A DNA stretch of 64,000 nucleotides from Maylandia zebra (Eukaryota; Chordata; Actinopteri; Cichliformes; Cichlidae), in NCBI RefSeq assembly GCF_041146795.1, contig NC_135176.1, forward strand, positions 15,493,286 through 15,557,285, in the 5' to 3' direction. Below are positions 1-25,586 of this stretch, piece after piece. Both the position numbers and the translations under genes were made by a program. The notes beneath the pieces were generated by a model. It worked only from the letters and a program-made list of their open reading frames with translations. It was not told the DNA's origin and made no database searches. Every line of letters starts with the position of its first letter. Within the stretch, counting starts at the first letter, position 1.

Positions 1-11
1 CATATGTAATG

Positions 12-2380: not shown

Positions 2381-4593
2381 TTAAATATCTTGTGTTTTTG
2401 TGCCACGGTCCTTTTTACGCCTGCGCATTGCAGCCATAGGATCGCCTTCTCTTTCCTGTTCTCTCAACATGCGGTCAAGATCCTCAAGTGGCTTAAGGGC
2501 TTCGCGCAGCGCTTCCTTAAGTTTCTGCTGATGCATCTGGATCTGTGCCAACCTATACATACATTTTAACATAAACCATTGAACCACTTTTATAATTTTT
2601 TATGTGGATATAATCACATAAACTGTGATATTTGAAATGATCATGCACATTTACCCTTTTCCCCACTGAGCGTATTTCTCGTCTCTTGCCGCTTTTTCAC
2701 CAGCTTTCTTTTTCTGTTCATTTCTCTCTGAATCCAGATCCCTCCTTTTGCCACTTTTGTCTCTGAAAATCGTCTGAGCCTTACGCGATTCATCTGGTCA
2801 AAGGGGATGAATGGGTAAGTATGTAGAAACTTCATTATTTAATTTTAGGACTAAATAAAATACGACAATATAGATGATAAGCTGAAATGAGATGCAAAGC
2901 TGTATGAAGCTCTTCAATCAATGGGTGTAAAAAAATCTTAAGAGAGAAAAGTTGATGAAATCTTCAAGTGGCTGATTGTGTTTTTCTCTGCGTCTGTTCT
3001 CCTTTTGCTCTTTCCTTAGAATGTCCACAGAAACCAGGCCTGCCTTTCCACCAGATAGCATCCTTTGGCCCTGGTTATAAAAAAAAAAAAGACAATTGAA
3101 AAATATAACATTTGAGTGAAATCAGATTTGACATTAATCTTTGTTCCAACACAGTCTGCTTACCTGTGACTGGCCTGGCCTACGAGGTGGTGACAAATCT
3201 CCATCCGAGTCCCTTCCACTCGGTGGCTGCCCCCTGGGTGGAGACTGGTCAGAGTCTGAGCCCCGTTTAGTTTTTGAGGGCCTCCTTGGGGGAGATTGGT
3301 CGGAGTCTGAGGCGTTTCCCTTCAGGGGCCTTTTCCTCGGGGGAGACGGATCCGAGTCTGAATCATGTCTATTCTGACCCTTCTTAGCCACCGCTGACCG
3401 ATGAGGATCCGGTGAGCGTTTTTTACTTAACAAGGATGAGCTGAGCTTGCTTTTGTTGGAGGCTGAATCTGACAAAGACACAGTTAATTTGTTAATTTTC
3501 ATTTTGTAATGCCTTTTGGACAAAAATTAAAGATTTATTATTAGATCAAGCTATGTCTTTAAAATAAATTTCAATTCAAAACTCATGTTAAATGGGTCTC
3601 TGCTTTTTACTTTTATTCATATGCCACACCAGATTCCACTTTACAATTTAAATGGATCACTGACCTTTACTTTGCATTTTTTCTGACTTTCCTGAACACT
3701 GTCTTGGTGGTGACAAGCCTGGGGAGTCATGGCGTCTTCTCCTGGGAGGAGAGACATCTGGAGAGTCGTGACGTCTTCTCTTGGGAGGAGAGACATCTGG
3801 AGAGTCATGACGTCTTCTCCTGGGAGGAGAGACATCAGGAGAGTCGTGACGTCTTCTCTTGGGAGGAGAGACATCTGGAGAGTTGTGATGTCTAGTCCTG
3901 GGAGGAGAGACATCTGGAGAGTCATGACGTCTTCTCCTGTGAGGAGAGACATCAGGAGAGTCGTGACGTCTTCTCCTGGGAGGAGAGACATCTGGAGAGT
4001 CGTGAGGTCTAGTCCTGTGAGGAGAGACATCTGGAGAGTCATGACGTCTTCTCTTGGGAGGAGAGACAACAGGAGAGTCGTGACGTCTTCTCTTGGGAGG
4101 AGAGACATCTGGAGAGTCATGAGGTCTAGTCCTGGGAGGAGAGACATCTGGAGAGTCATGACGTCTTCTCCTGGGAGGAGAGACATCTGGAGAGTCGTGA
4201 GGTCTAGTCCTGGGAGGAGAGACATCTGGAGAGTCATGACGTCTTCTCCTGGGAGGAGAGACATCTGGAGAGTCGTGAGGTCTAGTCCTGGGAGGAGAGA
4301 CATCAGGAGAGTCATGACGTCTTCTCCTGGGAGGAGAGACATCTGGAGAGTCGTGAGGTCTAGTCCTGGGAGGAGAGACATCTGGAGAGTCATGACGTCT
4401 TCTCCTGGGAGGAGAGACATCTGGAGAGTCGTGAGGTCTAGTCCTGGGAGGAGAGACATCAGGAGAGTCGTGACGTCTTGTCCTGTGAGGAGAGACATCC
4501 GGAGAGTACTTCCGACTTCTCTTTGGTGGAGAGATGTCTGGAGAGTCATGCCGGGTCTTTTTGACAGGAGAATCCTGTCCTCTTCTCTTTGAG
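2381..4593 (-). pseudogene. bud13: bud13 array unit B
   Basis: Same five exons as the other units; minisatellite about 3720–4505 (about 22 copies). The exon with the GGKAGLVSVDI motif has lost its donor: the GT used in other units reads AT here (plus about 2959–2960). The repeat-exon donor is GTCAGT rather than GTGAGT. The last exon runs into the frame-ending TAA at the junction (2381–2383). It carries QMHQQ where most units have QMHHQ, a variant shared with unit C. Confidence 0.75.
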
Positions 4594-6884: not shown

Positions 6885-9019
6885 TTAAATATCTTGTGTT
6901 TTTGTGCCACGGTCCTTTTTACGCCTGCGCATTGCAGCCATAGGATCGCCTTCTCTTTCCTGTTCTCTCAACATGCGGTCAAGATCCTCAAGTGGCTTAA
7001 GGGCTTCGCGCAGCGCTTCCTTAAGTTTCTGGTGATGCATCTGGATCTGTGCCAACCTATACATACATTTTAACATAAACCATTGAACCACTTTTATAAT
7101 TTTTTATGTGGATATAATCACATAAACTGTGATATTTGAAATGATCATGCACATTTACCCTTTTCCCCACTGAGCGTATTTCTCGTCTCTTGCCGCTTTT
7201 TCACCAGCTTTCTTTTTCTGTTCATTTCTCTCTGAATCCAGATCCCTCCTTTTGCCACTTTTGTCTCTGAAAATCGTCTGAGCCTTACGCGATTCATCTG
7301 GTCAAAGGGGATGAATGGGTAAGTATGTAGAAACTTCATTATTTAATTTTAGGACTAAATAAAATACGACAATATAGATGATAAGCTGAAATGAGATGCA
7401 AAGCTGTATGAAGCTCTTCAATCAATGGGTGTAAAAAAATCTTAAGAGAGAAAAGTTGATGAAACCTTCAAGTGGCTGATTGTGTTTTTCTCTGCGTCTG
7501 TTCTCCTTTTGCTCTTTCCTTAGAATGTCCACAGAAACCAGGCCTGCCTTTCCACCAGATAGCATCCTTTGGCCCTGGTTATAAAAAAAAAAAAGACAAT
7601 TGAAAAATATAACATTTGAGTGAAATCAGATTTGACATTAATCTTTGTTCCAACACAGTCTGCTTACCTGTGACTGGCCTGGCCTACGAGGTGGTGACAA
7701 ATCTCCATCCGAGTCCCTTCCACTCGGTGGCTGCCCCCTGGGTGGAGACTGGTCAGAGTCTGAGCCCCGTTTAGTTTTTGAGGGCCTCCTTGGGGGAGAT
7801 TGGTCGGAGTCTGAGGCGTTTCCCTTCAGGGGCCTTTTCCTCGGGGGAGACGGATCCGAGTCTGAATCATGTCTATTCTGACCCTTCTTAGCCACCGCTG
7901 ACCGATGAGGATCCGGTGAGCGTTTTTTACTTAACAAGGATGAGCTGAGCTTGCTTTTGTTGGAGGCTGAATCTGACAAAGACACAGTTAATTTGTTAAT
8001 TTTCATTTTGTAATGCCTTTTGGACAAAAATTAAAGATTTATTATTAGATCAAGCTATGTCTTTAAAATAAATTTCAATTCAAAACTCATGTTAAATGGG
8101 TCTCTGCTTTTTACTTTTATTCATATGCCACACCAGATTCCACTTTACAATTTAAATGGATCACTGACCTTTACTTTGCATTTTTTCTGACTTTCCTGAA
8201 CACTGTCTTGGTGGTGACAAGCCTGGGGAGTCATGGCGTCTTCTCCTGGGAGGAGAGACATCTGGAGAGTCGTGACGTCTTCTCTTGGGAGGAGAGACAT
8301 CTGGAGAGTCATGACGTCTTCTCCTGGGAGGAGAGACATCAGGAGAGTCGTGACGTCTTCTCTTGGGAGGAGAGACATCTGGAGAGTTGTGATGTCTAGT
8401 CCTGGGAGGAGAGACATCTGGAGAGTCATGACGTCTTCTCCTGTGAGGAGAGACATCTGGAGAGTCATGACGTCTTCTCCTGGGAGGAGAGACATCTGGA
8501 GAGTCGTGAGGTCTAGTCCTGTGAGGAGAGACATCAGGAGAGTCGTGACGTCTTCTCCTGGGAGGAGAGACATCTGGAGAGTCGTGAGGTCTAGTCCTGT
8601 GAGGAGAGACATCTGGAGAGTCATGACGTCTTCTCTTGGGAGGAGAGACAACAGGAGAGTCGTGACGTCTTCTCTTGGGAGGAGAGACATCTGGAGAGTC
8701 ATGAGGTCTAGTCCTGGGAGGAGAGACATCTGGAGAGTCATGACGTCTTCTCCTGGGAGGAGAGACATCTGGAGAGTCGTGAGGTCTAGTCCTGGGAGGA
8801 GAGACATCTGGAGAGTCATGACGTCTTCTCCTGGGAGGAGAGACATCTGGAGAGTCGTGAGGTCTAGTCCTGGGAGGAGAGACATCAGGAGAGTCGTGAC
8901 GTCTTGTCCTGTGAGGAGAGTCATCCGGAGAGTACTTCCGACTTCTCTTTGGTGGAGAGATGTCTGGAGAGTCATGCCGGGTCTTTTTGACAGGAGAATC
9001 CTGTCCTCTTCTCTTTGAG
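6885..9019 (-). pseudogene. bud13: bud13 array unit D (shortest)
   Basis: Shortest unit, 2135 bp, minisatellite about 8227–8930 (about 20 copies); all other unit lengths equal this plus multiples of 39. The third-exon donor GT is kept and the repeat-exon donor is GTCAGT. Near the 5' end of the minisatellite exon it carries YSPDDSP in place of YSPDVSP, a variant shared with unit G. The last exon ends at the junction TAA (6885–6887). Confidence 0.75.
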
Positions 9020-11271
9020 TTAAATATCTTGTGTTTTTGTGCCACGGTCCTTTTTACGCCTGCGCATTGCAGCCATAGGATCGCCTTCTCTTTCCTGTTC
9101 TCTCAACATGCGGTCAAGATCCTCAAGTGGCTTAAGGGCTTCGCGCAGCGCTTCCTTAAGTTTCTGGTGATGCATCTGGATCTGTGCCAACCTATACATA
9201 CATTTTAACATAAACCATTGAACCACTTTTATAATTTTTTATGTGGATATAATCACATAAACTGTGATATTTGAAATGATCATGCACATTTACCCTTTTC
9301 CCCACTGAGCGTATTTCTCGTCTGTTGCCGCTTTTTCACCAGCTTTCTTTTTCTGTTCATTTCTCTCTGAATCCAGATCCCTCCTTTTGCCACTTTTGTC
9401 TCTGAAAATCGTCTGAGCCTTACGCGATTCATCTGGTCAAAGGGGATGAATGGGTAAGTATGTAGAAACTTCATTATTTAATTTTAGGACTAAATAAAAT
9501 ACGACAATATAGATGATAAGCTGAAATGAGATGCAAAGCTGTATGAAGCTCTTCAATCAATGGGTGTAAAAAAATCTTAAGAGAGAAAAGTTGATGAAAT
9601 CTTCAAGTGGCTGATTGTGTTTTTCTCTGCGTCTGTTCTCCTTTTGCTCTTTCCTTAAAATGTCCACAGAAACCAGGCCTGCCTTTCCACCAGATAGCAT
9701 CCTTTGGCCCTGGTTATAAAAAAAAAAAAGACAATTGAAAAATATAACATTTGAGTGAAATCAGATTTGACATTAATCTTTGTTCCAACACAGTCTGCTT
9801 ACCTGTGACTGGCCTGGCCTACGAGGTGGTGACAAATCTCCATCCGAGTCCCTTCCACTCGGTGGCTGCCCCCTGGGTGGAGACTGGTCAGAGTCTGAGC
9901 CCCGTTTAGTTTTTGAGGGCCTCCTTGGGGGAGATTGGTCGGAGTCTGAGGCGTTTCCCTTCAGGGGCCTTTTCCTCGGGGGAGACGGATCCGAGTCTGA
10001 ATCATGTCTATTCTGACCCTTCTTAGCCACCGCTGACCGATGAGGATCCGGTGAGCGTTTTTTACTTAACAAGGATGAGCTGAGCTTGCTTTTGTTGGAG
10101 GCTGAATCTGACAAAGACACAGTTAATTTGTTAATTTTCATTTTGTAATGCCTTTTGGACAAAAATTAAAGATTTATTATTAGATCAAGCTATGTCTTTA
10201 AAATAAATTTCAATTCAAAACTCATGTTAAATGGGTCTCTGCTTTTTACTTTTATTCATATGCCACACCAGATTCCACTTTACAATTTAAATGGATCACT
10301 GACCTTTACTTTGCATTTTTTCTGACTTTCCTGAACACTGTCTTGGTGGTGACAAGTCTGGGGAGTCATGGCGTCTTCTCCTGGGAGGAGAGACATCAGG
10401 AGAGTCGTGACGTCTTCTCTTGGGAGGAGAGACATCTGGAGAGTCATGACGTCTTCTCCTGGGAGGAGAGACATCAGGAGAGTCGTGACGTCTTCTCTTG
10501 GGAGGAGAGACATCTGGAGAGTTGTGATGTCTAGTCCTGGGAGGAGAGACATCTGGAGAGTCATGACGTCTTCTCCTGGGAGGAGAGACATCTGGAGAGT
10601 CGTGAGGTCTAGTCCTGTGAGGAGAGACATCAGGAGAGTCGTGACGTCTTCTCCTGGGAGGAGAGACATCTGGAGAGTCGTGAGGTCTAGTCCTGTGAGG
10701 AGAGACATCTGGAGAGTCATGACGTCTTCTCTTGGGAGGAGAGACAACAGGAGAGTCGTGACGTCTTCTCTTGGGAGGAGAGACATCTGGAGAGTCATGA
10801 GGTCTAGTCCTGGGAGGAGAGACATCTGGAGAGTCATGACGTCTTCTCCTGGGAGGAGAGACATCTGGAGAGTCGTGAGGTCTAGTCCTGGGAGGAGAGA
10901 CATCTGGAGAGTCATGACGTCTTCTCCTGGGAGGAGAGACATCTGGAGAGTCGTGAGGTCTAGTCCTGGGAGGAGAGACATCAGGAGAGTCATGACGTCT
11001 TCTCCTGGGAGGAGAGACATCTGGAGAGTCGTGAGGTCTAGTCCTGGGAGGAGAGACATCTGGAGAGTCATGACGTCTTCTCCTGGGAGGAGAGACATCT
11101 GGAGAGTCGTGAGGTCTAGTCCTGGGAGGAGAGACATCTGGAGAGTCGTGACGTCTTGTCCTGTGAGGAGAGACATCCGGAGAGTACTTCCGACTTCTCT
11201 TTGGTGGAGAGATGTCTGGAGAGTCATGCCGGGTCTTTTTGACAGGAGAATCCTGTCCTCTTCTCTTTGAG
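9020..11271 (-). pseudogene. bud13: bud13 array unit E
   Basis: Minisatellite about 10362–11180 (about 23 copies). The third-exon donor GT is mutated to AT (about 9598–9599), as in units B and F. The repeat-exon donor is GTCAGT. The FRDKSGK exon has RQQTRN-type wording on the shadow frame, a one-base change shared with unit H, so variants are distributed in a mosaic across units. The last exon ends at the junction TAA (9020–9022). Confidence 0.75.
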
Positions 11272-13484
11272 TTAAATATCTTGTGTTTTTGTGCCACGGT
11301 CCTTTTTACGCCTGCGCATTGCAGCCATAGGATCGCCTTCTCTTTCCTGTTCTCTCAACATGCGGTCAAGATCCTCAAGTGGCTTAAGGGCTTCGCGCAG
11401 CGCTTCCTTAAGTTTCTGGTGATGCATCTGGATCTGTGCCAACCTATACATACATTTTAACATAAACCATTGAACCACTTTTATAATTTTTTATGTGGAT
11501 ATAATCACATAAACTGTGATATTTGAAATGATCATGCACATTTACCCTTTTCCCCACTGAGCGTATTTCTCGTCTCTTGCCGCTTTTTCACCAGCTTTCT
11601 TTTTCTGTTCATTTCTCTCTGAATCCAGATCCCTCCTTTTGCCACTTTTGTCTCTGAAAATCGTCTGAGCCTTACGCGATTCATCTGGTCAAAGGGGATG
11701 AATGGGTAAGTATGTAGAAACTTCATTATTTAATTTTAGGACTAAATAAAATACGACAATATAGATGATAAGCTGAAATGAGATGCAAAGCTGTATGAAG
11801 CTCTTCAATCAATGGGTGTAAAAAAATCTTAAGAGAGAAAAGTTGATGAAATCTTCAAGTGGCTGATTGTGTTTTTCTCTGCGTCTGTTCTCCTTTTGCT
11901 CTTTCCTTAAAATGTCCACAGAAACCAGGCCTGCCTTTCCACCAGATAGCATCCTTTGGCCCTGGTTATAAAAAAAAAAAAGACAATTGAAAAATATAAC
12001 ATTTGAGTGAAATCAGATTTGACATTAATCTTTGTTCCAACACAGTCTGCTTACCTGTGACTGGCCTGGCCTACGAGGTGGTGACAAATCTCCATCCGAG
12101 TCCCTTCCACTCGGTGGCTGCCCCCTGGGTGGAGACTGGTCAGAGTCTGAGCCCCGTTTAGTTTTTGAGGGCCTCCTTGGGGGAGATTGGTCGGAGTCTG
12201 AGGCGTTTCCCTTCAGGGGCCTTTTCCTCGGGGGAGACGGATCCGAGTCTGAATCATGTCTATTCTGACCCTTCTTAGCCACCGCTGACCGATGAGGATC
12301 CGGTGAGCGTTTTTTACTTAACAAGGATGAGCTGAGCTTGCTTTTGTTGGAGGCTGAATCTGACAAAGACACAGTTAATTTGTTAATTTTCATTTTGTAA
12401 TGCCTTTTGAACAAAAATTAAAGATTTATTATTAGATCAAGCTATGTCTTTAAAATAAATTTCAATTCAAAACTCATGTTAAATGGGTCTCTGCTTTTTA
12501 CTTTTATTCATATGCCACACCAGATTCCACTTTACAATTTAAATGGATCACTCACCTTTACTTTGCATTTTTTCTGACTTTCCTGAACACTGTCTTGGTG
12601 GTGACAAGCCTGGGGAGTCATGGCGTCTTCTCCTGGGAGGAGAGACATCTGGAGAGTCGTGACGTCTTCTCTTGGGAGGAGAGACATCTGGAGAGTCATG
12701 ACGTCTTCTCCTGGGAGGAGAGACATCAGGAGAGTCGTGACGTCTTCTCTTGGGAGGAGAGACATCTGGAGAGTTGTGATGTCTAGTCCTGGGAGGAGAG
12801 ACATCTGGAGAGTCATGACGTCTTCTCCTGGGAGGAGAGACATCTGGAGAGTCGTGAGGTCTAGTCCTGTGAGGAGAGACATCAGGAGAGTCGTGACGTC
12901 TTCTCCTGGGAGGAGAGACATCTGGAGAGTCGTGAGGTCTAGTCCTGTGAGGAGAGACATCTGGAGAGTCATGACGTCTTCTCTTGGGAGGAGAGACAAC
13001 AGGAGAGTCGTGACGTCTTCTCTTGGGAGGAGAGACATCTGGAGAGTCATGAGGTCTAGTCCTGGGAGGAGAGACATCTGGAGAGTCATGACGTCTTCTC
13101 CTGGGAGGAGAGACATCTGGAGAGTCGTGAGGTCTAGTCCTGGGAGGAGAGACATCTGGAGAGTCATGACGTCTTCTCCTGGGAGGAGAGACATCTGGAG
13201 AGTCGTGAGGTCTAGTCCTGGGAGGAGAGACATCAGGAGAGTCATGACGTCTTCTCCTGGGAGGAGAGACATCTGGAGAGTCGTGAGGTCTAGTCCTGGG
13301 AGGAGAGACATCTGGAGAGTCATGACGTCTTCTCCTGGGAGGAGAGACATCTGGAGAGTCGTGAGGTCTAGTCCTGGGAGGAGAGACATTCGGAGAGTAC
13401 TTCCGACTTCTCTTTGGTGGAGAGATGTCTGGAGAGTCATGCCGGGTCTTTTTGACAGGAGAATCCTGTCCTCTTCTCTTTGAG
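11272..13484 (-). pseudogene. bud13: bud13 array unit F
   Basis: Minisatellite about 12614–13390 (about 22 copies); relative to other units two 39-bp repeats are missing at its 5' end, next to YSPNVSP. The third-exon donor is AT (about 11850–11851) instead of GT. The repeat-exon donor is GTGAGT. The last exon ends at the junction TAA (11272–11274). Confidence 0.75.
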
Positions 13485-15736
13485 TTAAATATCTTGTGTT
13501 TTTGTGCCACGGTCCTTTTTACGCCTGCGCATTGCAGCCATAGGATCGCCTTCTCTTTCCTGTTCTCTCAACATGCGGTCAAGATCCTCAAGTGGCTTAA
13601 GGGCTTCGCGCAGCGCTTCCTTAAGTTTCTGGTGATGCATCTGGATCTGTGCCAACCTATACATACATTTTAACATAAACCATTGAACCACTTTTATAAT
13701 TTTTTATGTGGATATAATCACATAAACTGTGATATTTGAAATGATCATGCACATTTACCCTTTTCCCCACTGAGCGTATTTCTCATCTCTTGCCGCTTTT
13801 TCACCAGCTTTCTTTTTCTGTTCATTTCTCTCTGAATCCAGATCCCTCCTTTTGCCACTTTTGTCTCTGAAAATCGTCTGAGCCTTACGCGATTCATCTG
13901 GTCAAAGGGGATGAATGGGTAAGTATGTAGAAACTTCATTATTTAATTTTAGGACTAAATAAAATACGACAATATAGATGATAAGCTGAAATGAGATGCA
14001 AAGCTGTATGAAGCTCTTCAATCAATGGGTGTAAAAAAATCTTAAGAGAGAAAAGTTGATGAAACCTTCAAGTGGCTGATTGTGTTTTTCTCTGCGTCTG
14101 TTCTCCTTTTGCTCTTTCCTTAAAATGTCCACAGAAACCAGGCCTGCCTTTCCACCAGATAGCATCCTTTGGCCCTGGTTATAAAAAAAAAAAAGACAAT
14201 TGAAAAATATAACATTTGAGTGAAATCGGATTTGACATTAATCTTTGTTCCAACACAGTCTGCTTACCTGTGACTGGCCTGGCCTACGAGGTGGTGACAA
14301 ATCTCCATCCGAGTCCCTTCCACTCGGTGGCTGCCCCCTGGGTGGAGACTGGTCAGAGTCTGAGCCCCGTTTAGTTTTTGAGGGCCTCCTTGGGGGAGAT
14401 TGGTCGGAGTCTGAGGCGTTTCCCTTCAGGGGCCTTTTCCTCGGGGGAGACGGATCCGAGTCTGAATCATGTCTATTCTGACCCTTCTTAGCCACCGCTG
14501 ACCGATGAGGATCCGGTGAGCGTTTTTTACTTAACAAGGATGAGCTGAGCTTGCTTTTGTTGGAGGCTGAATCTGACAAAGACACAGTTAATTTGTTAAT
14601 TTTCATTTTGTAATGCCTTTTGGACAAAAATTAAAGATTTATTATTAGATCAAGCTATGTCTTTAAAATAAATTTCAATTCAAAACTCATGTTAAATGGG
14701 TCTCTGCTTTTTACTTTTATTCATATGCCACACCAGATTCCACTTTACAATTTAAATGGATCACTCACCTTTACTTTGCATTTTTTCTGACTTTCCTGAA
14801 CACTGTCTTGGTGGTGACAAGTCTGGGGAGTCATGGCGTCTTCTCCTGGGAGGAGAGACATCTGGAGAGTCGTGACGTCTTCTCTTGGGAGGAGAGACAT
14901 CTGGAGAGTCATGACGTCTTCTCCTGGGAGGAGAGACATCAGGAGAGTCGTGACGTCTTCTCTTGGGAGGAGAGACATCTGGAGAGTTGTGATGTCTAGT
15001 CCTGGGAGGAGAGACATCTGGAGAGTCATGACGTCTTCTCCTGGGAGGAGAGACATCTGGAGAGTCGTGAGGTCTAGTCCTGTGAGGAGAGACATCAGGA
15101 GAGTCGTGACGTCTTCTCCTGGGAGGAGAGACATCTGGAGAGTCGTGAGGTCTAGTCCTGTGAGGAGAGACATCTGGAGAGTCATGACGTCTTCTCTTGG
15201 GAGGAGAGACAACAGGAGAGTCGTGACGTCTTCTCTTGGGAGGAGAGACATCTGGAGAGTCATGAGGTCTAGTCCTGGGAGGAGAGACATCTGGAGAGTC
15301 ATGACGTCTTCTCCTGGGAGGAGAGACATCTGGAGAGTCGTGAGGTCTAGTCCTGGGAGGAGAGACATCTGGAGAGTCATGACGTCTTCTCCTGGGAGGA
15401 GAGACATCTGGAGAGTCGTGAGGTCTAGTCCTGGGAGGAGAGACATCAGGAGAGTCATGACGTCTTCTCCTGGGAGGAGAGACATCTGGAGAGTCGTGAG
15501 GTCTAGTCCTGGGAGGAGAGACATCTGGAGAGTCATGACGTCTTCTCCTGGGAGGAGAGACATCTGGAGAGTCGTGAGGTCTAGTCCTGGGAGGAGAGAC
15601 ATCAGGAGAGTCGTGACGTCTTGTCCTGTGAGGAGAGTCATCCGGAGAGTACTTCCGACTTCTCTTTGGTGGAGAGATGTCTGGAGAGTCATGCCGGGTC
15701 TTTTTGACAGGAGAATCCTGTCCTCTTCTCTTTGAG
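13485..15736 (-). pseudogene. bud13: bud13 array unit G
   Basis: Minisatellite about 14827–15645 (about 23 copies). Splice donors are kept (GTGAGT for the repeat exon, GT for the third exon). It is the first unit downstream of the putatively expressed copy. Its repeat exon is joined directly to the last exon of unit H at the junction near 15736/15737, without an acceptor, and in a different reading frame. Confidence 0.75.
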
Positions 15737-18341
15737 TTAAATATCTTGTGTTTTTGTGCCACGGTCCTTTTTACGCCTGCGCATTGCAGCCATAGGATCG
15801 CCTTCTCTTTCCTGTTCTCTCAACATGCGGTCAAGATCCTCAAGTGGCTTAAGGGCTTCGCGCAGCGCTTCCTTAAGTTTCTGGTGATGCATCTGGATCT
15901 GTGCCAACCTATACATACATTTTAACATAAACCATTGAACCACTTTTATAATTTTTTATGTGGATATAATCACATAAACTGTGATATTTGAAATGATCAT
16001 GCACATTTACCGTTTTCCCCACTGAGCGTATTTCTCGTCTGTTGCCGCTTTTTCACCAGCTTTCTTTTTCTGTTCATTTCTCTCTGAATCCAGATCCCTC
16101 CTTTTGCCACTTTTGTCTCTGAAAATCGTCTGAGCCTTACGCGATTCATCTGGTCAAAGGGGATGAATGGGTAAGTATGTAGAAACTTCATTATTTAATT
16201 TTAGGACTAAATAAAATACGACAATATAGATGATAAGCTGAAATGAGATGCAAAGCTGTATGAAGCTCTTCAATCAATGGGTGTAAAAAAATCTTAAGAG
16301 AGAAAAGTTGATGAAACCTTCAAGTGGCTGATTGTGTTTTTCTCTGCGTCTGTTCTCCTTTTGCTCTTTCCTTAAAATGTCCACAGAAACCAGGCCTGCC
16401 TTTCCACCAGATAGCATCCTTTGGCCCTGGTTATAAAAAAAAAAAAGACAATTGAAAAATATAACATTTGAGTGAAATCAGATTTGACATTAATCTTTGT
16501 TCCAACACAGTCTGCTTACCTGTGACTGGCCTGGCCTACGAGGTGGTGACAAATCTCCATCCGAGTCCCTTCCACTCGGTGGCTGCCCCCTGGGTGGAGA
16601 CTGGTCAGAGTCTGAGCCCCGTTTAGTTTTTGAGGGCCTCCTTGGGGGAGATTGGTCGGAGTCTGAGGCGTTTCCCTTCAGGGGCCTTTTCCTCGGGGGA
16701 GACGGATCCGAGTCTGAATCATGTCTATTCTGACCCTTCTTAGCCACCGCTGACCGATGAGGATCCGGTGAGCGTTTTTTACTTAACAAGGATGAGCTGA
16801 GCTTGCTTTTGTTGGAGGCTGAATCTGACAAAGACACAGTTAATTTGTTAATTTTCATTTTGTAATGCCTTTTGGACAAAAATTAAAGATTTATTATTAG
16901 ATCAAGCTATGTCTTTAAAATAAATTTCAATTCAAAACTCATGTTAAATGGGTCTCTGCTTTTTACTTTTATTCATATGCCACACCAGATTCCACTTTAC
17001 AATTTAAATGGATCACTCACCTTTACTTTGCATTTTTTCTGACTTTCCTGAACACTGTCTTGGTGGTGACAAGTCTGGGGAGTCATGGCGTCTTCTCCTG
17101 GGAGGAGAGACATCTGGAGAGTCATGACGTCTTCTCCTGGGAGGAGAGACATCAGGAGAGTCGTGACGTCTTCTCTTGGGAGGAGAGACATCTGGAGAGT
17201 TGTGATGTCTAGTCCTGGGAGGAGAGACATCTGGAGAGTCATGACGTCTTCTCCTGGGAGGAGAGACATCTGGAGAGTCGTGAGGTCTAGTCCTGTGAGG
17301 AGAGACATCAGGAGAGTCGTGACGTCTTCTCCTGGGAGGAGAGACATCTGGAGAGTCGTGACGTCTTCTCTTGGGAGGAGAGACAACAGGAGAGTCGTGA
17401 CGTCTTCTCTTGGGAGGAGAGACATCTGGAGAGTCGTGAGGTCTAGTCCTGGGAGGAGAGACATCTGGAGAGTCGTGAGGTCTAGTCCTGTGAGGAGAGA
17501 CATCAGGAGAGTCGTGACGTCTTCTCCTGGGAGGAGAGACATCTGGAGAGTCGTGACGTCTTCTCTTGGGAGGAGAGACAACAGGAGAGTCGTGACGTCT
17601 TCTCTTGGGAGGAGAGACATCTGGAGAGTCGTGAGGTCTAGTCCTGGGAGGAGAGACATCTGGAGAGTCGTGAGGTCTAGTCCTGGGAGGAGAGACATCT
17701 GGAGAGTCATGAGGTCTAGTCCTGGGAGGAGAGACATCTGGAGAGTCATGACGTCTTCTCCTGGGAGGAGAGACATCTGGAGAGTCGTGAGGTCTAGTCC
17801 TGGGAGGAGAGACATCTGGAGAGTCATGACGTCTTCTCCTGGGAGGAGAGACATCTGGAGAGTCGTGAGGTCTAGTCCTGGGAGGAGAGACATCTGGAGA
17901 GTCATGACGTCTTCTCCTGGGAGGAGAGACATCAGGAGAGTCGTGACGTCTTGTCCTGTGAGGAGAGACATCCGGAGAGTACTTCCGACTTCTCTTTGGT
18001 GGAGAGATGTCTGGAGAGTCATGCCGGGTCTTTTTGACAGGAGAATCCTGTCCTCTTCTCTTTGAAGACAACTCGGGTGAGTCATGTAGACCTCTGCTTA
18101 ATGAGCCAGCCTCTGTATTTTGATGTTCTTTTCCATTTCCTTCCTCTGTGTCATCATTTTGATCCACTTTTAGGAGAGGAAGTAAAACTATAGTAAACAA
18201 CAGTCTTAACTTAATATTGCACAAATCCCCCCCTACTTCTGTGACTTCTTATTTACCTCCAATTGCTTTCCATCTGTTGCTGGTCCTAAAAACTTCCATC
18301 TGTTTCACTTCCTCAGGTCGATCATCAATCACCTCAGCAAT
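15737..18341 (-). CDS. bud13: bud13-derived segment, 3' part of predicted usp42–bud13 chimera (unit H plus upstream exon)
   Basis: Six exons on the minus strand: 18257–18341 (IAEVIDDRPEEVKQMEVF, the BUD13 N-terminal block), 17021–18166 (minisatellite exon, 382 codons), 16520–16824 (SDSD/SPPR), 16318–16426 (GGKAGLVSVDI), 16011–16149 (FRDKSGK to YAQWGK) and 15737–15908 (LAQIQMH to DRMLREQEREGDPM, then TAA). All phases agree. BUD13 is a RES-complex subunit that aids spliceosome activation (known). The BUD13 start exon is not found between 18342 and 20636. The conserved BUD13 C-terminus (GYRWDGVDRSNGFE region), which contacts RES partners, is absent, so normal RES function is unlikely. The first exon opens in phase 0, as required by the last usp42 exon. 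The donor of exon 16318–16426 (GTTTCA) is weak. Confidence 0.8.
17080..17970 (-). repeat. 39-bp coding minisatellite of unit H
   Basis: About 23–25 copies of a 39-bp (13-codon) repeat, consensus HDSPDVSPPRRRR alternating with HDSPDVSPPRTRP. BUD13 orthologues carry a similar RHDSPD/SPPR region, so an ancestral feature has been amplified. Because 39 is a multiple of 3 and the unit lacks stops in several frames, both strands show long open frames that are not genes. A block of about 195 bp (five repeats, including the distinctive VVSPPK repeat) is present twice here, at about 17,290–17,484 and 17,485–17,679, but once in the other units. Confidence 0.9.
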
Positions 18342-18439
18342 CTGAACAGTCAACAAGAGATTAAGTTTTAAAACAGAACTTGTTGACATAACAAAATTAC
18401 CCAAACTATAAGCATACCCATTTAATACAATAGATTAGA

Positions 18440-18615
18440 TTTCAGCATTAAGTAAATGGCCTGTATTTGTATAGCGCTTTACTTAGTCCCTAAGGACCCC
18501 AAAGCACTTTACACGTTCAGTCATCCACCCATTCACACACACTGGTGATGGCAAGCTAAATTGTAGCCACAGCCGCCCTGAGGCGCACTGACAGAGGCGA
18601 GGCTGCCGGTGTTCC
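18440..18615. repeat. Dispersed teleost repeat fragment
   Basis: Contains the wording GTATAGCGCTTTACTTAG and CAAAGCACTTTACACG, followed by a stretch with CACCCATTCACACACACTGG. I recognise this as a dispersed repeat common in fish genomes, from memory of its wording only; the family name is not certain. It lies in the intron between the usp42 and bud13 exons. Confidence 0.5.
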
Positions 18616-19124
18616 AGATCTACTGGCGTTTAGATCAACTGGCGTTAGTCGAACAGATGTGTGGCAGACTTCTGTTTCAGGAGCTGCTACCTACAGACTA
18701 GCAAAAAAACGCCAAATGTGTCATCTGTGACACTTGTGAGGTTATCTCAAACACACTCCGTCAGTCTTGATGCTGTTGAACAACAAAATGTTTAAAAATG
18801 TGGCGAGTTTACCTAGGGTTATCCTCATGCGCGACGCGATCGCGAAAACAGCAAACAATTAACACCATGCCGATGTTGTTCACAGGACAACAAGAGTAAA
18901 CGATCGGGAGACTCTTGTTGTCGTTATCGTTCCCCTCACACGGTTTGTTTCTCCGAATTCAGCGTTTTTGCTTCACAACTAAAGCGAGCAGTTTACTTTG
19001 TGTGCACTAACATGGACTCGAGTCAACCAGTGCCACCACTGGCCAAGTGCCACAGCCTACAGCCAGATCAACTTGTGACACACATCTGCAGCACGTCTGA
19101 ATTCGTTTCATGCACAAACATTTT

Positions 19125-20264
19125 AGAGTTGGTTGTTATATACAGTCTGTATAAGTGTGGTTAATCTAATAAACATTTGTAAGGAGATGGCAGTTACTGT
19201 GAATGTACAGCAGTTACACAGTGATTAGTAATAAACAGTCAGACAATGACCCTGACTTTCTCATTCAGTCTTGTAGATTGAATGCACCTTCTGTGGAAAG
19301 TGGTACCACACAGTGTGTGTGGACTTCCCCTGTGCAGAAGGCGACTACAAATGTTGTGCATGTTAAATAAACAGAAAAAAGTGATCCCTGTTGTCTTTGC
19401 TTACTGATTGTTTTCAGTGTTGACAAGCCACATTGCTGCCATTGCATCTTTCAACATGTTTGTGGGTAGATTTGGATGTACCAGGGGTAAGTGCAGCCAC
19501 TCAGCCTCTACTCAATGTCATCATAGCAAGTTAATCTAGTAGTAGGCTATGGTAGGCTTGGTACTTGGCCACAGGTGGCAGCAGTGGACTGACCTCCATT
19601 TGAAACTGCTCCAGCTGCTGTGTGATAGTGGATCTGCTACAAATTGAAGATCATATGGAAGTTTTGGAAATTAACCCTTGTATTATGTTGAAAAACAAAA
19701 AAGTGACATTGATTTTGTTGCGGGTCATTTTGACCCATACTGTGTAAATCCACTCAGAATTGTCAAGAAACTGCAATAAAACAATAGCACCTTTATTTTC
19801 CATCAGATAAACATGTAGAACACAGACATACAACAGTGACTTTCCATAACTATTTTAGGAACAATTTGGTTTTTCGTTCTTACAAACACGTATTTTGAAC
19901 TTGCCCAACGTTCTCAGTTTTTCAATGCTCAACATTTTCGATTTTGTCCACATGATGGACAGAATGTAACTGTGTGCTTTCTGCAGATGTACTTCTTGTA
20001 TTTCTCACAAAAAGTGCTTGTTTTCAAACAGGAATCTTCCTAACTAAGATTTAAAACAAAAGATTTCTACGTCTCCTCCAGTCTCACAAACAGAACCAAT
20101 CGACACACCTGAGTCACTGACTTTCTTATATCCACTCACTCTCACTGGCTCTGTTTATTACTAATCACTGTGTAACTGCTGTAAATTCACAGTAACTGCC
20201 ATCTCCTTACAAATCTTCATTGGATTAACCACACTTATACAGACTGCATATAACTACCAACTCT
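19125..20264. mobile_element. Degenerate DNA transposon with about 113-bp inverted arms
   Basis: Arms at 19125–19237 and 20151–20264 are inverted copies at about 90% identity. Between them, at 19277–19366 on the plus strand, is a 29-codon open end with cysteine/histidine spacing CTFCGKWYHTVC then CCAC and a stop, followed by AATAAA; this resembles a PHD-like C-terminal finger of a transposase gene. A GGGTCATTTTGACCCA palindrome (about 19725–19740) is of the kind seen in fish piggyBac elements. Family assignment is tentative. The element sits in the intron that joins the usp42 and bud13 exon blocks. Confidence 0.55.
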
Positions 20265-20636
20265 CCAGCCATGTTGATGGATTGCCTATATTGGCTGGAA
20301 ATATTAATTTCCAGAGAAAGGACACAGACAGACGATGCTTACAGGATGTGATGTGACAACACTAATGAAATATTGACGTGTCATATTTGTCCAAGGCGTA
20401 TTTCATTGTTATGGAAAAAGAGAATATTAAAATCATGATGACCAATTGGAGCAGTGATTTCTATGACTTTGTGTATATAATTTGGAATTTTGTACAAATG
20501 TAGGCCAATAAGGAATATATGATATCATTTCATTCTTTTCAAACAGACACAATTGAAAGGTACAAATGTATTTTGCATGAAACACTGGGTTTAACAAAAA
20601 CAACAACATTATCAGTACCCTCAGGTGAGGAAGTAC

Positions 20637-23600
20637 CTTGTTCATGTGTGGTGGCAGCTGGGGACCTATGAAGCCAACACTGTTGTGAGGCATGGTGGCG
20701 ATGGTGCGTGGGCTCACCACCGGCTGGGGAGATGCCTGACCAGATATGCCAGCGTTATGGTTCAAGTGGCTGTAGTCCCCAGTTTTTCCCACATCTGTGC
20801 ACCTGATGACATGGAAAAAAGAATATTAACCATGACAAAGCATCAACATTATAACATTAGGTTATAATAATACATTTTCTACAAGAAAAGTGAGAATAAA
20901 CATGTCTACATTATTAAATAATGATGGGAAAAGTTCTACTGAAGGAATAAGCCTAGAATGTTTAAAAATACCGATGTTTACTCACTTGATGTAGAAGAGG
21001 ACATAGGCCTGCTGGTTGAGAACAGTGCTAATGTCACTGACTGACACGGACGAGTCATTCATCTGAAACCACTGCTCATTGCTGGCCTGTGAGACAGAAT
21101 GAGAGAGATGTGACACAGCAGATTCAGTTTCTGAATTGAATTTGAGCTAAAAAGAAGAATCTTATGGTTATATAGGGGTCTTTTTTTTCTTTCTTTCAAT
21201 GCATACAAAGTAGTTTTCTGCTGAAATGTGTTGTTTATGGTGTTTGTTTGTTTGTACTACGCAACAGCAGCATTCAAACAGATTCGGGCACAGCCAGTAC
21301 CTTAATATAGCAGAAATAGTGTCCAGTATGACAACTCAATCCAGAGTGAACCAGCACAGCATACAGCCTGTAGAGCTGGGGCTCCCCGTGGGACTGCGAC
21401 ATGAAGGGCCGCAGATCCAGATGCTCCAAATACTTCACATCCTGATGACCACCAAACAAAAAAATTCAAACATTACATGCAAATATCCTGTTTTATAATA
21501 AAACAAAGCATCTGTCATGTATCTTTATGACTTAAGCAGACACTATTGGCCATTTGCCTTTGTGATTTTGCCTCCACTGAAGTCTGCAAAGCGTTTGAGT
21601 GAGATGGTGAGCACATTGGCGCTGCGATGGATTGTAAATCTTTTTGAGGCCGTTACCATTTTGTTGCACCTGAAGGAAACAAACATTCAGCTTGTTGACA
21701 AAAATCACACCTAAACACTAAAACTCATCATGGTTTGGCATCTCTTTGACTTACTTGGTGCATTTATAAGCATTTTCACCACCCAGCTGTTCTGGCTTGA
21801 CAAACTGCTCCAGAGCTTTGGAGACATTTGGAGCAGTCTATATGAACAGAGAGAGAGAGGAAAAACCTCACACTCCATAATGCAGAGAATACATAGTAGC
21901 AACGTCACTTTGAATGTTGTCCAATTACCTTAATTTCCAGAGTGACATCCAGAAAAGGGTCAAATGTATCTGAGACAGCTTTGCAGTTTAAACATTTAAC
22001 TGAAACAGAAATCAGTGCTATGAGTATCACACAAGCTGTAAGACATAAAAAGACAAATAAAAGAAAAATAAATCAAACCTTAAAAAACAGTGACTTACCT
22101 CTGGATCTTAGGTACCCGCCAAACACTTGATGGATGAAAGAGGTTGCCTGCGTTTGCCTGTCCAATCTATAATAAAAAGATAAAGCACAAAAGTTAACTA
22201 ATAAGGACAGTGCAACAATTAACTGACTGACCATTTATTTTTTAGCATTTTGGAACCAGACAATCACTTTACAGTATTCAAGTAGCAGAAAAGACAATAG
22301 GAGGAATTGGAGCACGATTAATTACTTAAGAGGCCATCTGCTGCTACACGGGAAGAATTGATTTGATGAGAATTGACACTTTAGGTTCTTAAAAAAAGAA
22401 ATGAATTAATAAATTATTTTTAGGAGTCTAACAAGAAGCACAACACTCAGCCCAGTGCATCTGTTAAACGTGTAGTTTTGGTTAAATGTGCACATAGACT
22501 TCGAAGCTCTATAGTAACACATAGAAAAACCTGGATTTTCTGAATTTTGCTGCTGCAATAATAGCACTAATGCCATTAGGGTGAATAAGAGATGACCTGA
22601 GGGGTTGAGTGCTCCTGCTCACACTGCTTACCCTGTTGCCTCAGAAGAAATCTATACTAGACACTAAGTCTGGCAGCTCTCTGCCATAATCCCAGACACC
22701 TGTTTTACTACACGTTTAAGCCGCTTCTGATCTTTTCAAGCCCTGTTACCAAAACAAGCTACCACACCCAGTGTAAGAATACTTTCTGTGTTGGAGCAGT
22801 CAAGTTCATTAAAAAACTTGATATAATAATGAGGTATTATATCAAGTGGCTTGCCTAGTATGTAAACTGAGGTGTCAGTCAGGCAAGAGACTGAGGAATC
22901 TGCATTTCTGAAAAATACTCTCAGCAATTGAAGCATTAATAGTTAAAAGGAACTAGTATAAACTGCACTTCCTGAAAAACAGGATAAAGGATTTATTTCA
23001 TATTCTCCTACTGTCACGGTGTTACCTCTACGTAGCTAATTATGGATCTTACTACATAATAAAGTGCAAACACTGTCAAGCCCAAGTAAAAATATTTTTG
23101 TGTGTTTAACTTGTTTAGAATGCATGCAATGTAAAATGACACTCACTTGGTTCCAGGTAAGCAGGACCTTTGCATAGCATCCACTGTGCACCGCAGGAAT
23201 TCATGAGCATCTTCCTGGCTTCCATAGCGGAAGTGGTTTGCAATCCCTGTGTGAGGGGAACGAGGAAAAACAGAACCAAAAAACAAAGCAGGAGGTGAAT
23301 TATTGTAAAGGATACCACAGTTAAATGCAAGTTTACACTTATTTAAAAACAGAATTCAAAATCCCTCCAGATTATTTCCCTCCAAAATTACAAAAGGTAA
23401 ACAGTCACACAGCGCCTCCTATCATTAAAATATAGGTAAACACTTTGCACAGAGCACAGCAACAACAGTCATCCACTTACACCCAAGCTCATTGAGTACA
23501 CCAATGGGCTTAATGACATTCCCAGAGTTGGTAAAAACCTGAATGATGTGGTTTTGCATGGTACACATCATACAGAACCCTGGCTCATGACCTGCAGCAG

Positions 23601-24702
23601 AGACAGAGACAAAATACTGAGTGAGTAAGGAGTGATACAATGTGAGAATCAGCGCAGGACTGCGTAACACCACTGTTGGTGAAATAAACTTACATGTTTT
23701 GGAGTGCTCCCGCGTCAGCATGTAGTTTGCTAAAGGAGGGGTGTAGCTGAGACACTGCAGGGCTGAGTTGAGGAAGCAGGTGTTCCCCATGTTCTGGAGG
23801 CCTGCACCAATGAGGTGAACCTGGGCCCAATTTAGGCTGAGCCGATCTGGTGAGAACAGCACCTTCTGGGGCAAGTCAATTCCATCGCCACTGTTGATCA
23901 CTGACACACAGAGCCACAATTATTACTAAAAATCTGTTTCAATACATTTTAAAAAGGAGATAATTTAATGCCACCTTACTTATACAACCACACACTGGCA
24001 CATGGCAAAGTCATGTCAGGACATCACAGTAATAGCTACAACTATTAACAGTTATATAATGTGATTCTGGCCACTGTGAAAAACTCCTAAACAGCCTCAG
24101 GAAGAAAGATAGGACAATTTGCCTTCTCCTTTGTTTCTGCTAAACAAGTTGGGCTGCCGGTCTTTATATAAAAACAGCAATTGCATCACGAGCTGAAGTG
24201 ACTGATCATGCAAAGCTGGATGCATTACATAACTGGATGAATGAACGGAGAAGGGAAGCAGCAACACAACACCCACAAAAGCAGTTGTCAAACTTGTGTG
24301 AAAGCAGAAGCAAAAAGATTAGCTGTACGTTACTAAAACCAATTCTGACAAATATGGGTAAATAATGGCTAAAAAGTGTGGTTCCATATTTGCTAAAACT
24401 GGTTGGAAAACTATTCTGTCTGACAATAAAAATCTTCAAACAGCTTAAAAAGACATTTTGAAAAAAAGCCAGGCTTTGCTCTGACCTTGGTCCTTGGGCT
24501 GGTCCTCAGAGGAGGGTGTACTCTGAGGACCAGCCCCTTGGTCCTTGGGCTGGTCCTCAGAGGAGGGTGTACTCTGAGGACCAGCCCCTTGGTCCTTGGG
24601 CTGGTCCTCAGAGGAGGGTGTACTGTTGTACACAGCAGCTCCAGGTCCGAGTCCGGCTGACTCGTGGTCAGACTTTTCTGAAGATCTGTCAACTATGGTC
24701 AT
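20637..24702 (-). CDS. usp42: usp42 N-terminus and complete ubiquitin-specific protease domain (5' part of predicted chimera)
   Basis: Cysteine deubiquitinase that removes ubiquitin from substrates; human USP42 is nuclear. Eleven exons: 24486–24702, 23694–23900, 23481–23591, 23147–23246, 22099–22166, 21929–21999, 21755–21837, 21558–21669, 21301–21441, 20986–21086, 20637–20802; phases join to 459 codons. The start [12 protein letters not shown] matches the USP42 start. Cys box GNTCFLN (C114), His box [11 protein letters not shown] (H364), MNDS (N380/D381) and two zinc CxxC pairs (C237/C240, C284/C287) are present, so the domain looks catalytically complete. GFCMMCTMQ and [11 protein letters not shown] separate it from USP36. 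The last exon ends at the usual USP42 boundary after HMNK, in phase 0. The long Lys/Arg/Ser-rich tail of USP42 is not found; bud13 exons follow instead. Intron 8 has a GC donor. A 5'UTR acceptor probably lies at about 24,712. Confidence 0.9.
24486..24643 (-). repeat. 51-bp coding minisatellite in usp42 exon 1
   Basis: A 51-bp unit encoding [17 protein letters not shown] is repeated about 2.7 times. Two units contain a perfect 16-bp inverted repeat with a 9-bp loop (24496–24511 with 24521–24536, and the same 51 bp higher). The length stays a multiple of 3, so the frame is kept. Confidence 0.9.
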
Positions 24703-25484
24703 TGTTCATAGCTGCATTGGGAACATAGACACATACGTTTATGAACTGAAAACAAAACAAAACAAAAAAAACAACAACAACTCATTGTTATTTTGGAAAA
24801 AGGGAAAGGGAAAGAAAACTTAAATACTACATCAATCCTACACTGGTTAGGTAGCAGTACAGTGAGTTTGGACAACAACAACTAAATACAAAAGCCACAT
24901 TAACAGATTATACCCAATTTCGCTGTGCAAAAAACTGCACAATGACAATAAAAAGCTCTAAGTCTCTTATAGCTTATAGTTAAATAACGCTATATTAAAC
25001 ACTGCCCTCATACCATCGCCTAAACTTTCAGCAAACAAGTATCAGAAATTGTGTTAGATTGGATGATTTGTTTACATTCAAAAACAGACTAGCATAAGTG
25101 AGAGCCAAATATTAGTTTTTGACCGTTTGTTTTTATTTGAATCATCTTGTCAGATTCCTTTTAAATAACAAACACCAGTAGACAAGAGTAACTTTCGACA
25201 TCTAATTTAACTCTGTCCAACTAACAAACTTAAAATATCGACAAAAATTAGTGTTTAGAAAACTCAAGAGGGGAAATGCCAGATAACCCACTCGACCGAG
25301 GAAATTTCCAAGTCGGAAGCACGTTTACAACAGAAGCAGCTGTCCCCTCCCACCTGCTCTTACAGAGTGGCTCACATTGGCTAAATGACGGCTGCTAGGC
25401 CTTTAACACGCAGCGTCGCAAAACCTCAAGAAAACACACAAAAAACCCTGATCATATCAGACGGAGAGCAAGTTGAGAGCTTAC

Positions 25485-25540
25485 CAGTCTTGTCCAAATC
25501 CGAGATGGAATGACGCGCACTTAAAGAAGATGCAAAAACC
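25485..25540 (-). other. Possible 5' untranslated exon of usp42
   Basis: A good donor (GACTG then GTAAGC, exon edge 25485) lies on the minus strand upstream of the usp42 start, and a plausible acceptor (AATGCAG, about 24,712) precedes the ATG. The upstream limit of this exon is not visible. Low-certainty call. Confidence 0.3.
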
Positions 25541-25586
25541 ATGGAAACCACATAAACATATTTGTACATTAACATAAAGCTGTTGT

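What the first reader, a model, noticed from the sequence alone, without database searches (positions are those of the whole stretch)
15737..24702. Predicted in-frame usp42–bud13 chimeric gene
Seen: eleven usp42 exons and six bud13-type exons lie in one direction with consensus-type splice sites, and the cumulative phase is correct at every one of 17 exons, ending at 3,333 nt (1,110 aa plus stop). Usp42 stops at a natural exon boundary in phase 0, and the next bud13 exon starts in phase 0. Known: USP42 and BUD13 are separate genes in vertebrates; USP42 has a long basic tail and BUD13 a conserved C-terminus, and both are missing here. Inference: a deubiquitinase domain has been placed on a Ser/Pro/Arg-rich splicing-factor scaffold, which would be a new protein.
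Basis: partly seen in the sequence, partly recalled or inferred. Interest (0 to 1): 0.88.

Follow-up and report, generated by a model that had tools for sequence, protein, structure and literature searches.

The report
Cichlid USP42–BUD13 fusion gene family
A cichlid fish genome carries five open copies of a fusion gene that joins the front of a ubiquitin-removing enzyme (USP42) to the middle of a splicing protein (BUD13), and the predicted protein would likely bring ubiquitin removal to the splicing machinery, though no RNA or protein has been checked.

Summary
In detail: 17 minus-strand exons (24702–15737) give an open 1,110-residue USP42–BUD13 frame. It is identical to NCBI 'uncharacterized protein LOC112435439' of Maylandia zebra; a Simochromis diagramma protein has the same junction, so an assembly error is very unlikely. 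Five open copies of the chimera lie within 154 kb of this contig, starting 11 kb downstream of native bud13; native usp42 is on another contig. Each copy ends in 2–8 partial bud13 units. Breakpoints lie about 57 bp into usp42 intron 11 and in bud13 intron 2. BUD13's last two exons still follow the array in four copies but are cut off: the exon-17 donor is AT in 20 of 20 chimeric units, GT in native bud13. In exons 2–11, 21 of 26 amino-acid differences fall on the chimera lineage; nonsynonymous divergence from usp42 (3.1%) exceeds intron divergence (1.35%, P=0.001), though dN/dS is not separable from 1. Most likely reading: a young, amplified deubiquitinase whose speckle-targeting tail was swapped for BUD13's basic repeats plus its spliceosome-anchor stretch. 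Transcription, protein and function are untested.

The parts
24703..25548 (-). 5' flank matching the ~850 bp upstream of native usp42 on contig C8 (94.8% over an alignment that also enters exon 1); would carry the usp42 promoter region
   Evidence: blastn against C8:11371201-11373700
24486..24702 (-). exon 1 (usp42-like), ATG at 24702; lacks part of native usp42 exon 1 and holds a 51-bp tandem repeat
23694..23900 (-). exon 2 (usp42-like); codes catalytic Cys114
23481..23591 (-). exon 3 (usp42-like)
23147..23246 (-). exon 4 (usp42-like)
22099..22166 (-). exon 5 (usp42-like)
21929..21999 (-). exon 6 (usp42-like)
21755..21837 (-). exon 7 (usp42-like)
21558..21669 (-). exon 8 (usp42-like); donor GC instead of the native GT
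21301..21441 (-). exon 9 (usp42-like); codes catalytic His364
20986..21086 (-). exon 10 (usp42-like); codes Asn380/Asp381
20637..20802 (-). exon 11 (usp42-like), last usp42 exon, ends in phase 0
20580..20636 (-). start of the fusion intron: 57 bp of usp42 intron 11, then the usp42 breakpoint
   Evidence: alignment to native usp42
18610..20579 (.). DNA of other origin in the fusion intron, with a 114-nt foldback (arms 19125-19238 and 20151-20264)
18342..18609 (-). end of the fusion intron, matching native bud13 intron 2
18257..18341 (-). exon 12 = bud13 exon 3; present once in the window, phase 0 entry
17021..18166 (-). exon 13 = bud13 exon 4, expanded 39-bp (13-aa) repeat
16520..16824 (-). exon 14 = bud13 exon 5
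16318..16426 (-). exon 15 = bud13 exon 6
16011..16149 (-). exon 16 = bud13 exon 7
15737..15908 (-). exon 17 = bud13 exon 8 with an 18-bp deletion, lost donor (native CACAAG|GTGTTTAA, here CACAAGATATTTAA) and read-through to TAA at 15737
15735..18064 (-). bud13 array unit 1 (part of the chimera)
13483..15734 (-). bud13 array unit 2; checked sites intact, would lie in the 3' UTR
11270..13482 (-). bud13 array unit 3; exon-15 donor GT to AT
9018..11269 (-). bud13 array unit 4; exon-15 donor GT to AT
6883..9017 (-). bud13 array unit 5; checked sites intact
4592..6882 (-). bud13 array unit 6; checked sites intact
2379..4591 (-). bud13 array unit 7; exon-15 donor GT to AT
1..2378 (-). bud13 array unit 8, last unit; nonsense codon in exon 14; bud13 exons 9 and 10 follow outside the window

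Best explanation
This is a real chimeric gene, one of five open copies on one contig, in which exons 1-11 of a duplicated usp42 are joined in frame to exons 3-8 of a duplicated bud13, and it is predicted to make a nuclear deubiquitinase whose own basic tail has been swapped for BUD13's basic repeat tail and anchor stretch, which would likely dock it on the splicing machinery. Origin: a usp42 copy that kept about 850 bp of its 5' flank came to lie next to a partial bud13 copy near native bud13 (parental loci and breakpoints shown; order of events inferred). Matching phase-0 introns would let splicing run from usp42 exon 11 to bud13 exon 3 (sites shown, splicing untested). The exon-17 donor changed from GT to AT, which cuts off the RBMX2-binding C-terminus (sequence shown), and the partial bud13 unit and the whole locus were amplified (shown). 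Mechanism: Cys114, His364 and Asn380/Asp381 are kept (shown), so the enzyme is likely active. The BUD13 half is strongly basic (+53 over 651 residues) and SP/R-rich (shown) and likely disordered; it would replace the USP42 tail that targets speckles, and it keeps the first 17 residues of the stretch matching human BUD13 530-557, which contacts CWC22, PRP8 and PRP2. Without the RBMX2-binding end, it would act as a spliceosome-associated deubiquitinase outside the RES complex, beside native USP42 and BUD13 (inferred).
For: Intact 17-exon frame; identical NCBI protein. Second cichlid protein with the same junction; the USP halves of the two chimeras are monophyletic, 100/99 support, with 11 shared derived residues. 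Five of five copies in this genome are open with the same splice dinucleotides, in a 257-kb stretch without N. Both parents located: native bud13 C10:15349865-15353290, with matches to all parts of the A. calliptera protein; native usp42 on C8. Breakpoints. usp42 5' flank retained. Catalytic residues kept; best PDB match a USP36 catalytic domain, 8bs3, E 1.4e-161. Exons 2-11: 21 of 26 aa differences on the chimera lineage, 3 on the native lineage, 2 unresolved. Nonsynonymous 28/905.5 sites vs introns 36/2673, P=0.0012; without CpG sites 24 of about 866 (denominator estimated) vs 29/2627, P=0.0011. Tail charge and composition. Anchor stretch kept, lying mostly in predicted helices 1027-1088 and 1092-1100 (pLDDT 84-95 for 1021-1090, 72 for 1091-1100, 52 for 1101-1110). 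Passages of papers: USP42's basic C-terminal disordered region and its activity place it in speckles (PMC8329168); BUD13 530-557 anchors to CWC22/PRP8/PRP2 (PMC10208982); USP6 as precedent for retargeting a deubiquitinase by fusion (PMC6913916).
Against: No RNA or protein evidence could be examined. dN (0.0316) is not separable from dS (0.0241): P=0.68. All exonic sites together exceed introns (34/1158 vs 36/2673, P=0.0014), so part of the excess may be a local mutation-rate effect. The copies are young (cp1 vs cp5 introns 3/2689), and only about 1.2 nonsense changes would be expected under neutrality (P of none 0.32), so open frames are weak evidence of constraint. The stop is followed by further spliceable array exons, so the mRNA might be a target of nonsense-mediated decay. 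Intron 8 has a GC donor where native usp42 has GT. The two halves disagree on history: the M. zebra BUD13 half groups with A. calliptera native BUD13 (91/90), not with the Simochromis chimera, so gene conversion or repeated local duplication must be assumed. Only 11 of the 28 anchor residues' far end is conserved poorly: after the first 17 the stretch diverges. The full-length structure prediction was poor (mean pLDDT 47.9), also over the catalytic region (ten-residue blocks 24-79 between residues 101 and 410). A C19 usp42 duplicate shares derived sites with the chimera, so some changes predate the fusion.
Confidence: 0.58

Rival explanations
1. A young, selectively neutral segmental-duplication family: the chimeric frames are open only because they are recent, and the gene is silent or makes RNA without function.
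For: Copies nearly identical; dN and dS not separable; few nonsense changes expected; array units 3, 4, 7 and 8 already carry damaged sites; GC donor; the BUD13 part lost its conserved C-terminus, and exon 17 diverged fast from A. calliptera native BUD13, 7/57 vs 5/212 codons, P=0.0045.
Against: Five of five copies keep the frame and every splice dinucleotide; nonsynonymous change exceeds intron divergence; catalytic residues untouched; the same junction is predicted in another genus; usp42 5' flank retained.
Confidence: 0.3
2. Two transcription units annotated as one: a truncated usp42-like gene ending in intron 11 and a separate bud13 fragment; gene predictors joined them because the phases happen to match.
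For: Matching phase-0 introns are not rare (general knowledge); a UniRef M. zebra model of the USP part (P0242, 371 aa) ends without bud13; the fusion intron is 2.3 kb in the window and 11 kb in copy 2.
Against: Two NCBI predictions in two genera use the same junction; no bud13 exons 1-2 were found in the window.
Confidence: 0.1
3. Assembly artefact placing usp42 and bud13 sequences side by side.
For: Tandem 2.2-kb units and 39-bp repeats are hard to assemble.
Against: Separate Simochromis protein with the same junction; five copies differing in unit number, intron length and point changes with no N in 257 kb.
Confidence: 0.02

Closest known systems
USP42 (native, here contig C8:11373722-11380632)
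   Same: Catalytic domain, exon structure 1-11, start MTIVD, catalytic residues, about 850 bp of 5' flank
   Different: The chimera lacks the exons after 11 (the C-terminal tail) and part of exon 1, and has 26 aa differences in exons 2-11; its intron 8 donor is GC, not GT
BUD13 (native, C10:15349865-15353290)
   Same: Exons 3-8, including the basic 13-aa repeat and most of the stretch matching human 530-557
   Different: Lacks exons 1-2 and 9-10 (RBMX2-binding end); repeat expanded to about 25 units against 5-9 in the four other proteins counted; exon 8 has lost its donor
BUD13 homolog of Simochromis diagramma (P0002, 878 aa)
   Same: USP42 part joined to BUD13 at the same residues; shared derived USP residues
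   Different: Keeps the complete BUD13 C-terminus; its BUD13 half is closer to Sarotherodon native BUD13
USP6/TRE17, hominoid fusion of TBC1D3 and USP32 parts
   Same: Lineage-specific deubiquitinase joined to part of another gene; the partner domain is needed for the new binding target (PMC6913916 passages)
   Different: Partner at the N-terminus; unrelated partner; USP6 is experimentally characterised

Membership tests
USP deubiquitinase family (Pfam PF00443) | Complete UCH domain | tested here: met
   Profile 1-254 of 254, E 4.4e-62
USP deubiquitinase family (Pfam PF00443) | Catalytic Cys, His, Asn/Asp | tested here: met
   Cys114, His364, Asn380/Asp381, aligned to USP36; their catalytic role is recalled for the family
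USP deubiquitinase family (Pfam PF00443) | Ubiquitin-cleaving activity | not testable with these tools
   needs protein
USP42 subfamily | Groups with USP42 by sequence | tested here: met
   Sister to A. calliptera usp42, 99/95, in a tree of 10 rows
USP42 subfamily | Long basic disordered C-terminal tail of USP42 | tested here: not met
   No tail exon found in the window; usp42 homology stops 57 bp into intron 11
BUD13 / RES complex subunit | Complete Bud13 domain | tested here: not met
   Profile 1-100 of 144
BUD13 / RES complex subunit | C-terminal RBMX2/Snu17-binding segment (around the invariant Trp) | tested here: not met
   Stop before it; donor lost; segment defined in PMC4515762 and PMC4192513 passages
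BUD13 / RES complex subunit | CWC22/PRP8 anchor stretch, human 530-557 | tested here: inconclusive
   First 17 of 28 residues identical, the rest diverges; binding not tested
Chimeric gene by exon shuffling | Two separate parental loci with breakpoints in introns and an in-frame product | tested here: met
Chimeric gene by exon shuffling | Transcript crossing the junction | not testable with these tools
   no RNA data available

The most novel reading that the evidence does not exclude
Haplochromine cichlids have evolved a new, positively selected, copy-number-variable deubiquitinase family that docks on the activating spliceosome through BUD13's CWC22/PRP8 anchor and strips ubiquitin from its components, a lineage-specific layer of splicing control that arose during the radiation.
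Probability: 0.17. Interest if true: 0.85.

Novelty: new variant of a known kind. Interest (0 to 1): 0.64.

Why it matters
It is a fully mapped case of exon shuffling in cichlids, a model adaptive radiation (general knowledge): parents, breakpoints, splice-site changes and amplification can all be read from one assembly. If expressed, it links ubiquitin removal to the spliceosome by a tail swap between two splicing-associated proteins, and it offers a five-copy, fast-changing candidate for functional and copy-number studies. USP6 in hominoids is a precedent for such a fusion giving a deubiquitinase a new target.

Tried and rejected
Assembly artefact: rejected. Truncation of BUD13 by the array junction: rejected, because the same ATATTTAA is present in the terminal unit of each of the five copies, before native-like downstream sequence. 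bud13 exons 1-2, bud13 C-terminus or the usp42 tail hidden in the window: none found by tblastn. Usp42-like gene inserted into the native bud13 locus: not the case for the window copy, since native bud13 lies about 140 kb from the window with its exons 1-2; left open for Simochromis, where only a protein was seen. Nonsense-count test of constraint: no power. Rfam on window 1-26000: no match.

Paper searches: usp42 with bud13 gave 3 papers, judged by title and abstract listing only, none about a fusion by that listing; usp42 with cichlid 0; bud13 with cichlid 0; LOC112435439 0; cichlid/chimeric-gene terms showed nothing on this gene among the 12 listed of 1,056; the usp42/paralog/fish search showed nothing relevant among the 8 listed of 4,073. 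The library is open-licence papers only.

Rows seen and dropped: only the best 120 rows of 3,231, 1,404 and 2,236 hits were listed; 2 of 120 carry both domains (P0001, P0002), and the length limits exclude such proteins. The members of the P0001 cluster (19) could not be listed. In the USP tree one intended outgroup (P0024) was skipped because a motif was not found and P0242 was left out, leaving 10 rows; in the BUD13 tree three of four extra outgroups (P0125, P0126, P0129) fell out for the same reason, leaving 6 rows. In one search the end of exon 13 was set at a fixed distance before exon 14 in each copy. Splice sites of native bud13 and the full frame of native usp42 were not each checked. 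bud13 exons 18-19 of copy 3 were not found by the exact pattern used.
Full report
CHECK OF THE OBSERVATION. On the minus strand of the window, 17 exons from 24702 to 15737 splice to 3,333 nt with correct phases throughout, giving 1,110 residues and a stop. Fifteen of 16 introns are GT-AG; intron 8 is GC-AG. Pfam finds a complete UCH domain in the first half and a truncated Bud13 domain in the second. The product is letter-identical to P0001, NCBI's 'uncharacterized protein LOC112435439' of Maylandia zebra, whose cluster holds 19 member sequences. The contig holding the window (C10, 34,949,860 bp) has the same length as the contig listed for P0001.

INDEPENDENT SUPPORT. P0002 of Simochromis diagramma (878 aa, called 'BUD13 homolog') also carries UCH and Bud13 and passes from one to the other at the same residues, MNK|IAEV. 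A tree of the catalytic region (10 rows) joins the two chimeras with 100/99 support, sister to Astatotilapia calliptera usp42 (99/95) and apart from Neolamprologus brichardi; they share 11 derived residues. NCBI taxonomy puts Simochromis in Tropheini and Maylandia in Haplochromini. Barring gene flow, the usp42 duplicate and its fusion are at least as old as the split of these two lineages, and an assembly error is very unlikely.

THE WIDER LOCUS. When genome search finally answered, it showed that the window is C10:15493286-15557285 and that native bud13 lies on the same contig at 15349865-15353290, with matches to all parts of the A. calliptera protein. Native usp42 is on C8, with further usp42 pieces on C19, C9, C1 and C11. 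Between 15364639 and 15517987 there are five complete copies of the chimera, three on the plus strand and two on the minus strand; the window copy is the fifth. All five have the same 17 exons, the same splice dinucleotides and open frames of 1,136, 1,136, 1,136, 1,032 and 1,110 residues. Their bud13 ends are repeated in tandem 3, 2, 2, 5 and 8 times. In the window the eight units are 2.1-2.4 kb long and differ pairwise at 2-6 of 1,329 non-repeat positions. Units 3, 4 and 7 have lost an exon-15 donor and unit 8 has a nonsense codon, while units 1, 2, 5 and 6 show no such damage. Introns of copies 1 and 5 differ at 3 of 2,689 sites, and the four longest self-matches, 14-17 kb, are 98.9-99.5% identical, so the amplification is recent.

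HOW IT WAS BUILT. Homology to native usp42 starts about 850 bp upstream of the ATG and ends 57 bp into intron 11. Homology to native bud13 starts in its intron 2, about 268 bp before exon 3. Between them lie about 2 kb of other DNA with a 114-nt foldback. Both flanking introns are phase 0, so the join is in frame. In native bud13, exon 8 ends CACAAG|GTGTTTAA; in 20 of 20 chimeric units it reads CACAAGATATTTAA, so the donor is gone and translation runs into TAA, while native bud13 and a lone fragment at 15475292 keep GT. The two C-terminal exons still follow the array in four copies (1, 2, 4 and 5; copy 3's were not found by the exact pattern used); in the window copy the last one also carries a 7-nt deletion. 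Truncation therefore predates amplification. Against A. calliptera native BUD13, exon 17 has 7 amino-acid changes in 57 codons plus an 18-bp deletion, against 5 in 212 for exons 12 and 14-16 (P=0.0045).

THE TWO HALVES DISAGREE. In the BUD13 half (6 rows), the M. zebra chimera groups with A. calliptera native BUD13 (91/90) and the Simochromis chimera lies outside. With native bud13 only 11 kb from the nearest chimera, gene conversion or renewed local duplication is a natural explanation, but it is inferred. Alternatively, the Simochromis fusion may sit at its native bud13 locus; only its protein was seen.

SELECTION. Against native usp42, exons 2-11 show 28 nonsynonymous and 6 synonymous differences (dN 0.0316, dS 0.0241; a site-by-site count gives 29 and 5). 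Introns of the same stretch differ by 1.35% (36 of 2,673). The nonsynonymous rate exceeds the intron rate (P=0.0012; without CpG sites 24 of about 866 against 29 of 2,627, P=0.0011, the 866 being an estimate). Of 26 amino-acid differences, 21 fall on the chimera lineage (13 shared with Simochromis), 3 on the native lineage and 2 are unresolved. On the other side, dN and dS cannot be told apart (P=0.68), all exonic changes together also exceed introns (P=0.0014; synonymous alone P=0.17), the nonsense test has no power, and a C19 usp42 duplicate shares derived sites such as N315D and F358L, so some change came before the fusion. I read this as accelerated evolution, adaptive or relaxed.

LIKELY FUNCTION. 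The catalytic residues are kept, and the closest solved structures are USP36 catalytic domains. Passages of PMC8329168 say that human USP42 reaches nuclear speckles through its positively charged, disordered C-terminus, with enzymatic activity also needed. The chimera loses that tail and gains a BUD13 half with net charge +53 over 651 residues, 57 SP dipeptides and about 25 copies of the 13-residue repeat, against +31 over 738 residues for the usp42 tail of the cichlid Archocentrus, +25 over 737 for that of the unnamed P0013, and 5-9 repeats in the four other proteins counted. Passages of PMC10208982 say that BUD13 530-557 is bound to PRP2, PRP8 and CWC22 and anchors the RES complex; this stretch maps to chimera residues 1078-1105, the first 17 identical and the rest diverged, mostly inside predicted helices (pLDDT 84-95 for 1021-1090, then 72 and 52). 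The same model was poor over the catalytic region and the repeats. The RBMX2-binding end (PMC4515762 and PMC4192513 passages) is lost. The proposed mechanism, a deubiquitinase docked on the spliceosome but outside the RES complex, follows from these parts but is inference. The array gives a caution: in the RNA, further spliceable exons follow the stop, which could trigger decay unless polyadenylation comes first; AATAAA motifs lie in intron 13 of every unit.

NOVELTY. In the held open-licence library no paper holds usp42 or bud13 together with cichlid or names LOC112435439; by their listing, none of the three papers with both gene names is about a fusion. Chimeric genes formed by exon shuffling are a known kind; USP6 is a deubiquitinase precedent (PMC6913916 passages). 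This is a new architecture of that kind, notable for its amplification and fast change. Transcription, protein and function remain to be shown.

Noticed in passing
window 24485-24624: 51-bp tandem repeat (2.7 copies, 100% matches) inside coding exon 1; the Simochromis chimera has one copy of the coded unit.
   Followed up: partly
window 18610-20579: Two-kilobase insert in the fusion intron with a 114-nt foldback (95% complementary, 912 nt apart); origin not identified. In copy 2 the fusion intron is about 11 kb.
   Followed up: partly
G000 C19:27969119-27998680, C9:15569655-15572288, C1:26780375-26788076, C11:23179396-23195259: Further usp42 duplicates or pieces, several covering the C-terminal tail, on four other contigs; the C19 one shares derived sites with the chimera and has a changed exon-8 donor.
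   Followed up: partly
G000 C10:15475133-15475700: Lone native-like bud13 fragment (exon 8 onward) with the GT donor intact, between chimera copies 4 and 5.
   Followed up: no
proteins P0004-P0006 and P0009-P0012: USP36/42-type catalytic domains joined to unrelated domains in bird predictions (Cuculus canorus with PF01873; Columba livia with PF21047, PF02985 and PF23227): other possible USP fusions.
   Followed up: no
protein P0121: Sarotherodon galilaeus BUD13 protein is named 'cohesin complex subunit SA-1/2' by its source, probably a naming error.
   Followed up: no
window 31996-32349 (+), 57894-58388 and 61455-61979 (-): Neighbouring genes: an exon with a weak BAR_3 match, below Pfam's cut-off (arhgap42-like, name recalled), and a TRP_2/ankyrin channel gene (TRPC-like, name recalled).
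   Followed up: no
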